Positions 6,580 to 11,255 of a DNA stretch of 11,530 nucleotides are shown one piece after another. This stretch comes from DAOVGU01 sp030637775 [NCBI: bacterium] (GTDB lineage: Bacteria; Ratteibacteria; UBA8468). A program made the translations under genes and the position numbers. Position 1 is the stretch's first letter; each line of letters opens with the position of its first letter. The notes under the pieces were generated by a model that saw only the letters and a list, made by a program, of their open reading frames with translations, was not told the DNA's origin and made no database searches. The stretch spans positions 1 to 11,530 of the forward strand of contig DAOWFY010000035.1 in NCBI GenBank assembly GCA_030637775.1. Reading direction: 5' to 3'.

Positions 6580-7530
6580 CTAAATTAACTCTTTTGTTTT
6601 TACCCTCCTTAATATTTTATAGATATCCTTCTTTTGGCAGATTGCTGTTCCTGGTTGTAAAGCGGTGGCAGTGCCAAGAGCAACTCCAAATCTAAGTGCA
6701 TCTTGCAGATCCCTTCCTTTTGTAAGTGAGAAGAGAAATCCCGCCAAAAATGCATCCCCGGAGCCAATCGTACTTTTTACCCTTATTTGTGGAGGAGTTG
6801 CTAAAAGGGTTTCCTTTTTGGCTACCAGGATTGCTCCTTTTTTTCCTAAAGAGGTGAGCACAATCTTGATTCCCTTTTCAAGAAGATTTTTAGAAAAAGT
6901 AATAATCTCGGGAATTGTTCTCACATTTTTTTTAGATAGACGCGACAACTCCCAGAGATTTGGTTTAATAAGAAATGGAGCGCTCTTTACTCCTAACCGA
7001 AAGGGCTCATTGTCAGAATCGAGTACCGTCCTTACTCCTCTTTTCTTTAATCTTTTGATAATCTTTTGATAGATGCTTGGAGGAACTCCGGGGGTAAGAC
7101 TTCCGGAGCAAACAAAGTAGTCATTTTTTTGATAGGGGAGAGAAAAGATATCAGAGGCAAGCTCTTCAATTTCTTCTTTCCCTACCTTTGGTCCTTTTTC
7201 ATTAAGACGTATTGTTCTTTTTGTTTTATCTTCAAAGATATTTAGAATAAGTCTTGTTTCCTCATTGATTTTGATAAAGGAGAAGGGAACTTTCTTTTTG
7301 GAGAGAAGTTCTTCTATTCTTTTTCCGGTAGCACCCCCGGAGAAGCCCAAAGTCAATGTAGAGCCACCCAAAAAAGAGAGAACCCGGGAGACATTGATTC
7401 CCTTTCCTCCCGGGTCTTCCTGAAAGCGATTGATGCGGTTGATGTCATCAAAGAGGATCTGTTTGATGATGATACTTTTATCCAGGCAGGGATTTAAGGA
7501 AAGGGTATAGATGGTTGGTAATCTTTTCAA
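6580..7530 (-). CDS. 1-phosphofructokinase-family (PfkB superfamily) sugar-phosphate kinase
   Basis: A 316-residue PfkB/ribokinase-superfamily kinase of the FruK/LacC/PfkB hexose-phosphate branch, which phosphorylates sugar phosphates with ATP. The branch is indicated by the N-terminal TLSLNPCLDKSI (9-20) with D17. The GGKGINVSR motif (41-49) and the C-terminal signature GSGDAFLAGFL, with catalytic base D259, are intact. It could be 1-phosphofructokinase, 6-phosphofructokinase-2 or tagatose-6-phosphate kinase; the sequence does not separate these. The start is TTG: it forms TTGA with the rpsU stop, GGAGAG lies 7 nt upstream, and the family N-terminus begins right there. This implies coupling to rpsU. 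No fructose PTS gene accompanies it, which weakly favours a central glycolytic role. It ends with TAG directly against amrS on the other strand. Confidence 0.88.
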   Translation of the reverse strand: MKRLPTIYTLSLNPCLDKSIIIKQILFDDINRINRFQEDPGGKGINVSRVLSFLGGSTLTLGFSGGATGKRIEELLSKKKVPFSFIKINEETRLILNIFEDKTKRTIRLNEKGPKVGKEEIEELASDIFSLPYQKNDYFVCSGSLTPGVPPSIYQKIIKRLKKRGVRTVLDSDNEPFRLGVKSAPFLIKPNLWELSRLSKKNVRTIPEIITFSKNLLEKGIKIVLTSLGKKGAILVAKKETLLATPPQIRVKSTIGSGDAFLAGFLFSLTKGRDLQDALRFGVALGTATALQPGTAICQKKDIYKILRRVKTKELI

Positions 7531-7715
7531 CCTTGACTCTCCGGGTATACTCTCCTGAACTTCTTTTTTCTTCTGCGAATTTTGCTTGGTTTTTCGTAAT
7601 ACTCATGCTTCCTCAGTTCCTGAGCGATCCTTTCCTTCTCTACCTCTTTTTTGAATCTCCGGAAGAGTTTCTCGAAACTTGGGTTCCTTCCAGAATATCG
7701 CAAAGTAGCCGTCAC
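7527..7715 (-). CDS. rpsU: Small ribosomal subunit protein S21
   Basis: S21 is a small basic protein of the 30S platform near the 3' end of 16S rRNA. The core FEKLFRRFKKEVEKERIAQELRKHEYYEKP matches the family pattern (ALRRFKR...REFYEKP), followed by an arginine/lysine-rich tail; the length of 62 residues is normal. The GTG at 7715 gives an N-terminus that aligns with other S21 proteins, and an in-frame TAG lies two codons upstream, so it is the longest possible start. An alternative is TTG at 7703, for which AGGGGGTGA would be a well-spaced Shine-Dalgarno. The GTG begins 3 nt after the zinc-ribbon gene stop. The TGA stop overlaps the TTG of the downstream kinase. The usual S21 neighbours (dnaG, rpoD, yqeY) are absent here. 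Confidence 0.88.
   Translation of the reverse strand: MTATLRYSGRNPSFEKLFRRFKKEVEKERIAQELRKHEYYEKPSKIRRRKKKFRRVYPESQG
7537..7542 (-). promoter_or_regulatory. Ribosome binding site for the TTG-started kinase
   Basis: GGAGAG on the minus strand lies 6 nt upstream of the TTG at 7530-7528, inside the last codons of rpsU. It supports TTG as the true kinase start, since no ATG lies nearby in frame. Confidence 0.65.
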
Positions 7716-7718
7716 CCC

Positions 7719-7958
7719 CTATTCGATAAAAAGTCTTGCCCCACAATATCTGCAGACCTTTTCTCCTTCTGAGTAACCATCGACAATTAAACAGTTTCTA
7801 CAGCGAATGTTTCTATGAGTCCCGTGAGAAACTTTGCTTCCGACACTGAGGCGTTGTCGGACGCCAGAGCTTTGGCGGCGTCTGACGGGATGAGCAGTTT
7901 CGACCTTTACCTGAGAATCCTTTTTACTTCCCTTTTTTTTTACCTTTTTATTAACCAT
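7719..7958 (-). CDS. Small lysine-rich zinc-ribbon protein of unknown function
   Basis: I do not recognise this 79-residue protein. It begins with a strongly basic tail (VNKKVKKKGSKK, residues 2-13) and ends in a zinc-ribbon-like knuckle pair, C53/C56 and C69/C72 (IRCRNC and VCRYCG). The layout resembles small zinc-ribbon ribosomal proteins (L32, L37e) only in general shape; I would not call it either. ATG at 7958 is chosen because the predicted promoter starts transcription about 2 nt before it; a TTG at 7988 would lie inside the promoter. There is no Shine-Dalgarno. Residues 20-44 are encoded by a palindromic element, so the middle of the protein may be a recent insertion between basic tail and zinc ribbon. 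Its stop is 3 nt before rpsU, which suggests a role tied to translation. Confidence 0.65.
   Translation of the reverse strand: MVNKKVKKKGSKKDSQVKVETAHPVRRRQSSGVRQRLSVGSKVSHGTHRNIRCRNCLIVDGYSEGEKVCRYCGARLFIE
7828..7901. repeat. 74-bp branched palindromic element inside the zinc-ribbon gene
   Basis: Outer arms GAAACT (7828-7833) and AGTTTC (7896-7901) pair perfectly and can be extended by TTGCT with AGC. Inside are two adjacent hairpins: CCGACA/TGTCGG (7840-7845 with 7855-7860) and GACGCC/GGCGTC (7860-7865 with 7877-7882), the latter extendable to a 10-bp arm pair (7856-7865 with 7877-7886) with one G-T mismatch. A further pair, TCCCGT (7820-7825) with ACGGGA (7885-7890), offers an alternative fold. 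On the minus strand the element begins exactly at codon 20 of the zinc-ribbon gene and leaves the frame open. It looks GC-richer than the flanks. A dispersed, in-frame inserted palindrome is the best reading, but copies elsewhere cannot be checked here. Confidence 0.65.
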
Positions 7959-8975: not shown

Positions 8976-9068
8976 TCACAGATGGACGCAGATATACACA
9001 AATTATTGTAGTGGCAAAGTTTACTTTGCCGCCGAGTAAACTCGGCAACTACACTGTGTTAATCTGTG
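8976..9068. repeat. Intergenic palindromic repeat with three-way-junction core
   Basis: The core is 9007-9053: outer stem TGTAGT (9007-9012) with ACTACA (9048-9053), enclosing GGCAAAGT/ACTTTGCC (9013-9020 with 9023-9030) and GCCGAGT/ACTCGGC (9031-9037 with 9040-9046). Only one base, A9047, is left unpaired at the junction. Flanking arms also pair imperfectly: CGCAGATATACACA (8987-9000) with TGTGTTAATCTGTG (9055-9068), 11 of 14 positions. The ATCTGTG/ATCTGCG wording of the flanks resembles an intergenic motif I recall from many environmental genomes, a recollection not checked. It fills most of the gap between the kinase gene and lptD. No T-run follows the hairpins, so it is not a classical terminator. 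Confidence 0.7.
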
Positions 9069-11104: not shown

Positions 11105-11112
11105 GGAGGTTC

Positions 11113-11237
11113 GGAAGTTCCCTTCAGCGGCATGCTCGATTTCCCCAGCGAGGAAATCTTCACTCTCGTTCCTCCTCGCTCATCCTTCGGATACCGTGCC
11201 CGCTCGTCGGTAACAAGGCACGCCTCAGGGAACTTCC
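11113..11237. repeat. 125-bp GC-rich foldback element between lptD and rdgB
   Basis: Perfect 11-bp terminal inverted repeats GGAAGTTCCCT (11113-11123) and AGGGAACTTCC (11227-11237) enclose several hairpins: GATTTCC/GGAAATC (11138-11144 with 11152-11158), ATCC/GGAT (11182-11185 with 11189-11192) and GTGCC/GGCAC (11196-11200 with 11217-11221). G+C is 76 of 130 bases for 11111-11240, higher than the AT-rich genes on either side. A minus-strand reading frame runs through it but resembles no protein I know. It looks like a MITE-like or REP-like repeat, or a structured RNA. Confidence 0.65.
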
Positions 11238-11255
11238 TCGCCTTTGATATAAAAA

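What the first reader, a model, noticed from the sequence alone, without database searches (positions are those of the whole stretch)
7828..7901. Palindromic element embedded in frame in a protein gene
A 74-bp branched palindrome starts exactly at codon 20 of the zinc-ribbon gene and supplies about 25 codons between a lysine-rich tail and the zinc knuckles, without breaking the frame. This recalls the Rickettsia palindromic elements, which insert in coding regions and are kept as peptide. If repeated in this genome, it would be another lineage using protein genes as landing sites for a palindromic repeat.
Basis: partly seen in the sequence, partly recalled or inferred. Interest (0 to 1): 0.6.

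Follow-up and report, generated by a model that had tools for sequence, protein, structure and literature searches.

The report
Nested palindromic DNA inside bacterial genes
A small gene of an uncultivated bacterium carries, in its reading frame, a tiny mobile-looking palindrome with a second palindrome lodged inside it, and close relatives carry such palindromes in a range of conserved genes, so short parasitic DNA appears to be kept as spare protein linkers in this lineage too.

Summary
The palindrome is real and in frame, but it is a composite with other borders. Window 7821-7889 (minus) is a 27-bp palindrome, "A", split by a nested 42-bp double hairpin, "B" (7839-7880, 14 codons), between near-identical 6-bp repeats, in a zinc-ribbon gene beside rpsU of a Ca. 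Ratteibacteria relative. One family member has A without B; in the sister genome A holds another palindrome; in the fourth A looks decayed and a third palindrome lies upstream. A and those two other palindromes are multicopy in the family and also lie in frame in conserved genes (RecJ, PurL, DnaB, EF-G-like, IspH, CarA, WecB, LptG; fumarase in the window's own genome). Copies of A carry 6-bp target-site duplications (6 of 24 perfect, 0.9 expected), so its 27-bp form adds 33 bp, 11 codons. The likeness to Rickettsia palindromic elements holds in kind, not membership. Against: the 74-bp unit is single-copy, B has one partial match elsewhere, and folding of the composite alone is modest. In-frame palindromes are already known from Rickettsia, Wolbachia and, as REPs, other bacteria: a new variant of a known kind.

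The parts
7719..7958 (-). zinc-ribbon gene, 79 aa: Lys-rich tail, linker with palindromes, CRNC...CRYC zinc ribbon
   Evidence: only weak Pfam zinc-ribbon hits below cut-off and no NCBIfam hit; model ordered from about residue 48, linker of low confidence
7821..7889 (-). composite palindrome: element A with B nested (codons 24-46)
7881..7889 (-). 5' arm of element A, CCCGTCAGA (P-V-R)
   Evidence: alignment with G002 and G001
7821..7838 (-). loop remainder and 3' arm of element A, AGCAAAGTTTCTCACGGG (S-K-V-S-H-G)
   Evidence: the A of G002 is found by leave-one-out model R2, 24.8 bits, E 7e-4; the window's split copy is not found by the model
7839..7880 (-). nested insert B, 42 bp = 14 codons (RRQSSGVRQRLSVG), absent in G001-G003; two hairpins
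7839..7861 (+). hairpin of B, TCCGACACTGAGGCGTTGTCGGA; 22 of 23 bases recur in G034 (same class), intergenic, after a CRISPR-like repeat array
7862..7877 (+). second hairpin of B, CGCCAGAGCTTTGGCG
7890..7895 (-). upstream copy of the flanking direct repeat, GCTCAT (putative target-site duplication)
   Evidence: 5 of 6 identical to the downstream copy
7815..7820 (-). downstream copy of the flanking direct repeat, ACTCAT
7527..7715 (-). rpsU (ribosomal protein S21), just downstream
   Evidence: Pfam 3.9e-14, TIGR00030 3.2e-13

Best explanation
The stretch is the product of two successive insertions of small palindromic elements into a disordered linker of a zinc-ribbon protein. First, in an ancestor of this Ratteibacteria family, the 27-bp element A inserted and duplicated a 6-bp target; the 33 bp gained are 11 whole codons, so the frame survived. 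Later, in the window's species, a second palindrome (B, net +42 bp) inserted into the loop of A; in the sister species another palindrome (TCCCGTATTAAATACGGGA, element C) settled in the same loop. Both kept the frame, and selection kept only such insertions. The peptide most likely does nothing specific and is tolerated as linker. Shown: multicopy palindromes, target duplications of A, in-frame presence in conserved genes, absence of B in three relatives. Inferred: that B arrived as a mobile element, which enzyme moves A, translation, and neutrality.
For: G002 reads GTTAGA|AGCAAAG where the window has 42 extra bp. A is multicopy with 6-bp direct repeats exactly at its ends: 8 of 28 copies perfect against 0.9 in shuffles; without the zinc genes 6 of 24 against 0.9, reached in 0 of 20,000 shuffles. 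A lies in frame inside RecJ, PurL, PriA and LptG of G001. C: 62 places in G001; at 13 of 59 examined it is in frame in a gene with a recognised family, 12 internally. D (TTTCTTGCGAAAGCAAGAA) is in frame in the zinc gene and a DHH phosphoesterase of G003 and in fumarase of the window's own genome. The linker is modelled without secondary structure.
Against: B has no second copy in its own genome and one partial hairpin match in 291 genomes. The pattern search for A has a background: 23 matches against 10 for the reversed control in 36 genomes, so the single hits of G000 and G002 are not above it. The flanking repeats of A in the zinc gene agree within G001 (ACTCAT twice) and within G002 (GTCCAC twice) but differ between them, which one old insertion does not predict, while the shared loop AGCAAA(G) does predict one. 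Sixteen of 28 copies have fewer than 5 of 6 flanking bases alike, and the four G035 copies only 1 of 6. Net gain over solved relatives is only about 5 residues in PriA, 3 in UDP-glucose dehydrogenase and about 2 in the GlmM-like mutase. No transposase is tied to A. The composite folds at only z -1.9.
Confidence: 0.8

Rival explanations
1. The hairpins arose in place: template switching or quasi-palindrome mutation in a fast-evolving linker, with no mobile element involved.
For: B is single-copy in the held genome; the linker varies freely in length across the class; three genomes each have a different extra hairpin there.
Against: A, C and D are multicopy with near-identical sequence at unrelated loci and A has 6-bp target duplications. 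It remains possible for B alone; C shows no target duplication either.
Confidence: 0.15
2. The hairpin is kept for an RNA job, such as autoregulation of the zinc-ribbon/rpsU unit, and the peptide is a by-product.
For: A hairpin of some kind can be drawn in the linker of 4 of 4 family members, next to a ribosomal protein gene.
Against: The hairpins are largely unrelated in sequence and position; no Rfam match over the region; RNA folding z only -1.25; the same elements sit at dozens of unrelated places.
Confidence: 0.08
3. Ordinary linker variation with chance self-complementarity.
For: The 94-nt stretch as RNA is only z -1.25 and the composite z -1.9.
Against: Exact 42-bp insertion against G002, and palindromes in the same linker of G001 and G003 that are multicopy in their genomes.
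Confidence: 0.03

Closest known systems
Rickettsia palindromic elements (RPE) and Wolbachia counterparts
   Same: Palindromic repeats inserted in frame in many conserved protein genes and retained as peptide; a review states 105-146 bp elements in 19 reading frames (PMC2229807, passages read; the Wolbachia case seen only as a reference title there).
   Different: A is 27 bp in its commonest form; A shows 6-bp target-site duplications, which that review's table marks '?' for RPE; different phylum; sequences not compared.
Intragenic REPs (GTAG and CGTC families; 2013, PMC3733652)
   Same: Short multicopy palindromes inside ORFs of many bacteria, many in DNA synthesis and repair genes; REP dimers inserted in palindromes; different REPs at about the same site in recB of two Xanthomonas species (passages and section 15 read).
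   Different: A and C lack the GTAG/CGTC terminal tag that names those families; A has target duplications and, at 27 bp, a frame-neutral length.
[quoted passage not shown]
   Same: Terminal inverted repeats, target-site duplication, dispersed, no gene of its own (A).
   Different: 27 bp is little more than the two inverted repeats; no parent insertion sequence identified.

Membership tests
Rickettsia palindromic elements | in-frame insertion in conserved protein genes | tested here: met
Rickettsia palindromic elements | multicopy in the genome | tested here: inconclusive
   met for A, C, D in at least one family genome; not met for B or for the 74-bp unit
Rickettsia palindromic elements | sequence homology to an RPE family | not tested
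   no RPE sequence was fetched; no membership claimed
Rickettsia palindromic elements | expressed protein product | not testable with these tools
   no expression data
GTAG/CGTC REP families | GTAG or CGTC tag at one end of the palindrome | tested here: not met
   by eye: ends of A are CCCG/CGGG, of C TCCC/GGGA; a different palindrome of the window, 9007-9053, does begin TGTAGT
GTAG/CGTC REP families | association with a Y1 (RAYT-type) transposase | tested here: inconclusive
   Y1_Tnp matches in 4 of 4 family genomes, also in 5 of 14 control genomes; one lies about 140 bp from a C copy in G001:C157; none shown to flank A
MITE | terminal inverted repeats | tested here: met
   CCCGTTAGA/TCTAACGGG
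MITE | target-site duplication | tested here: met
   6 bp
MITE | related autonomous insertion sequence | not tested

The most novel reading that the evidence does not exclude
Element A is a translated mini-transposon, perhaps among the smallest known (not searched for): its 27-bp form plus a 6-bp target duplication adds exactly 11 codons, and the sense strand of that form is open only in the PVR...NG frame, so a landing in a linker can be survived. Its loop then serves as a safe harbour in which further palindromes (B, C, A itself) nest, so that this lineage lengthens protein linkers stepwise by stacked selfish palindromes, even in replication and translation enzymes.
Probability: 0.45. Interest if true: 0.75.

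Novelty: new variant of a known kind. Interest (0 to 1): 0.62.

Why it matters
How palindromic repeats reach coding frames, and whether they get there by transposition, is to my knowledge still open (recalled; the review marks target duplication of RPE with '?'). A family with exact target duplications, a length that keeps the frame, filled and emptier sites in close relatives, and nested insertions makes that question testable outside the Rickettsiales, in an uncultivated phylum that is probably not host-bound (inference). It also warns annotators that short inserts in core enzymes of such genomes can be real sequence.

Tried and rejected
Whole-element searches for the 74-86 bp found the window itself and otherwise only short matches, the best in G034. 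A search for one hairpin of B with up to 3 mismatches gave 17 matches in G000 against 6 for the reversed control, nearly all at 3 mismatches; I took them as background. The GACGCC...GGCGTC pattern (in G000 no more frequent than its control) led to a different dispersed repeat of G000, G001 and G003; no homology to B beyond 6-bp arms, so I dropped it as B's parent. A hairpin census of 164 kb (20 contigs or parts of contigs plus the window) showed only a mild excess, so palindrome abundance alone is no argument. Element C shows no target duplication (20 copies), so the transposition argument is for A only. Rfam: nothing. B's hairpin in viral contigs: nothing. An ORF of G008 with A (L179) looked TolB-like to my eye but has no family match and is not counted. 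Not counted either: ORFs where the repeat lies upstream of or at a doubtful start, or without a family check (for example L161, L173, L135, L239, L254, L271, L273). The 13 of 59 for C leaves out 3 of the 62 places: two fetched regions gave no row of their own (probably removed as duplicates by identical flanks), one my expression missed. For D, 17 of 20 places in G000, G001 and G003 had loci. For the duplication test I used 24 copies of A with loci (all 16 places and 8) and the four zinc genes; nine weaker places without loci and one truncated match were left out. One search scored only 150 candidates per genome.

Full report
Setting. The window is one contig of an incomplete genome (G000, 1.40 Mb in 177 contigs, 83.5% complete). 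Three family members are held: G001 (same genus), G002 and G003. Three of the seven loci have the contig lengths of the G001-G003 hits; one of them is titled Candidatus Ratteibacteria (the other four are weak matches in Clostridia MAGs). The gene (7719-7958, minus) encodes 79 residues: a Lys-rich start, a linker and a CxxC/CxxC ribbon, just upstream of rpsU. Matches to it at E up to 10 occur in 26 of 31 same-class relatives, nearly all over the ribbon part alone. What precedes the ribbon ranges from about 15 to over 100 residues. The structure model gives confident strands only from residue 48 (residues 1-40 at mean pLDDT 54-57).

The element. Compared with G002, the window has exactly 42 extra bases between GTCAGA and AGCAAA: 14 codons, RRQSSGVRQRLSVG, window 7839-7880. 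They form two hairpins. On either side stand CCCGTCAGA and AGCAAAGTTTCTCACGGG, the counterpart of CCCGTTAGAAGCAAAGTTTCTAATGGG in G002, which is a near-perfect palindrome there (with its flanks, 0 of 1000 shuffles fold as well).

Element A is a dispersed repeat. The pattern CCCGTTAGA..AACGGG occurs in 7 of 36 genomes, including all four of the family: 23 matches (both strands counted) against 10 for the reversed control, with 6 in G001, 3 in G003, 1 each in G000 and G002, so single hits mean little alone. A covariance model finds 7 matches in G000, 19 in G001, 3 in G002 and 11 in G003 at E up to 1 per genome, both strands of one place often counted; the nine copies it was built from match by construction. 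With the zinc gene of G002 left out of the model, that copy is still found at E 7e-4 in 24 kb. The zinc-gene copies of the window, G001 and G003 are not found by the model; they are recognised by alignment only.

Element A duplicates its target. In 28 copies the six bases before and after the palindrome are identical in 8 (shuffled pairing: 0.9) and alike at 5 or more in 12 (3.5); none of the other widths tried (3-5, 7, 8) gives a perfect pair. Without the four zinc genes: 6 of 24 against 0.9, reached by none of 20,000 shuffles. In the zinc gene the pairs are GTCCAC twice in G002, ACTCAT twice in G001, GCTCAT/ACTCAT in the window, 3 of 6 alike in G003. Of the 24 other copies 12 are 27 bp, and 27+6 gives 33 bp, 11 codons; in 19 of 24 the length plus six is a multiple of three. 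The five exceptions are not in verified genes.

Element A sits in frame in genes. Internally: RecJ (about 11 residues that two solved RecJ lack), PurL (family model spans it, residues 1-585; the best solved match stops before it), PriA (net gain only about 5 residues) and LptG (C nested in A, as in the zinc gene of G001). Near the start: adenine phosphoribosyltransferase in the window's own genome, and, read from the other strand, a pilin-like protein of G003 just before its methylation motif. That is 4 internal and 2 N-terminal of 24. The sense-strand cases use the same frame, P-V-R...N. N-terminal cases are weaker, since the true start may lie downstream.

Other palindromes. C, TCCCGTATTAAATACGGGA with up to 2 mismatches, has 62 places in G001, 8 in G003, 1 in G002 and none in G000; the reversed control matched once in 36 genomes. 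At 13 of 59 examined places of G001 it lies in frame in a gene with a recognised family: a GlmM-like mutase, LptG, UDP-glucose dehydrogenase and the neighbouring epimerase, archease, an M28/Antibiotic_NAT-domain protein (between the domains), the zinc ribbon, IspH, DnaB, WecB, CarA, an EF-G-like protein, and RecJ at its very start. Against solved relatives the dehydrogenase gains 3 residues and the mutase about 2, less than the element's length, so C may replace as well as add. D, TTTCTTGCGAAAGCAAGAA, with an outer stem that co-varies by eye, is exact at 11 places in G003, 3 in G000 and 2 in G001. It is in frame at 4 of 17 examined loci: the zinc gene of G003, a DHH phosphoesterase of G003 (13 residues absent from the solved relative shown), a PurS repeat protein of G001, within a longer insert, and fumarase in G000, where some 23 residues with AFLRKQE separate two blocks that are 2-4 residues apart in the two solved proteins shown.

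B itself. It has no second copy found in G000. One of its hairpins recurs with 22 of 23 bases in G034, a class relative, in intergenic DNA next to a CRISPR-like array, and in no other of 291 genomes at up to 3 mismatches. That B came as a mobile palindrome is therefore an inference by analogy with C, which took the same loop in G001.

Mechanism. I infer that A moves by an enzyme making 6-bp staggered cuts; which one is unknown. All four family genomes have Y1 transposase matches, but that type is recalled not to duplicate its target, so it would fit C or D better than A. Insertions that break a frame are lost by selection; those in linkers persist as peptide. Nesting (C in A in two genes, B in A, A against or in A in G000:C35 and in an IMG/VR contig) suggests that palindromes attract or shelter each other.

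Unexplained. The flanks of A in the zinc gene agree within G001 and within G002 but differ at four of six positions between them, while the loops agree. Repeat-to-repeat conversion or independent re-insertion could do this; I cannot tell.

Literature. In-frame RPEs and other intragenic small elements are reviewed in PMC2229807 (passages read); intragenic REPs of many species, REPs inside palindromes and a recurrent site are in PMC3733652 (passages and section 15 read). PMC2635572 was seen in passages only. Searches for Ratteibacteria with repeat, Omnitrophica with palindromic, and uncultivated-phylum terms listed no report of such elements there (listings only); searches covered the general topic. 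Subscription papers and preprints are not covered.

Noticed in passing
window 11105-11245: Another dispersed palindromic repeat of about 140 bp, 75-90% identical over parts to copies in G000, G001 and G002; it supplies the start of an ORF that runs off the contig end.
   Followed up: partly
window 9007-9053: Intergenic palindrome beginning TGTAGT and ending ACTACA, REP-dimer-like, with partial copies in related genomes.
   Followed up: partly
L140, G001:C113 28487 and 29885: Two neighbouring genes, a sugar epimerase and UDP-glucose dehydrogenase, each carry element C in the same PVFNTG reading.
   Followed up: yes
L056, G000:C131 1707-1877: A larger multicopy branched repeat (GACGCC...GGCGTC plus a second hairpin), with tens of full or partial matches in G000, G001 and G003 at E up to 10.
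   Followed up: partly
L279 6999-7025: A contig of IMG/VR carries element A inserted in another A, just upstream of a 356-aa ORF.
   Followed up: no
L276, G001:C175: WecB with element C near its start seems by eye to carry a second, unrelated insert around residues 270-300; the family model matches it in two stretches.
   Followed up: no
L154/L186, G001:C79: RecJ of G001 carries two palindromes, C at its start and A inside.
   Followed up: partly
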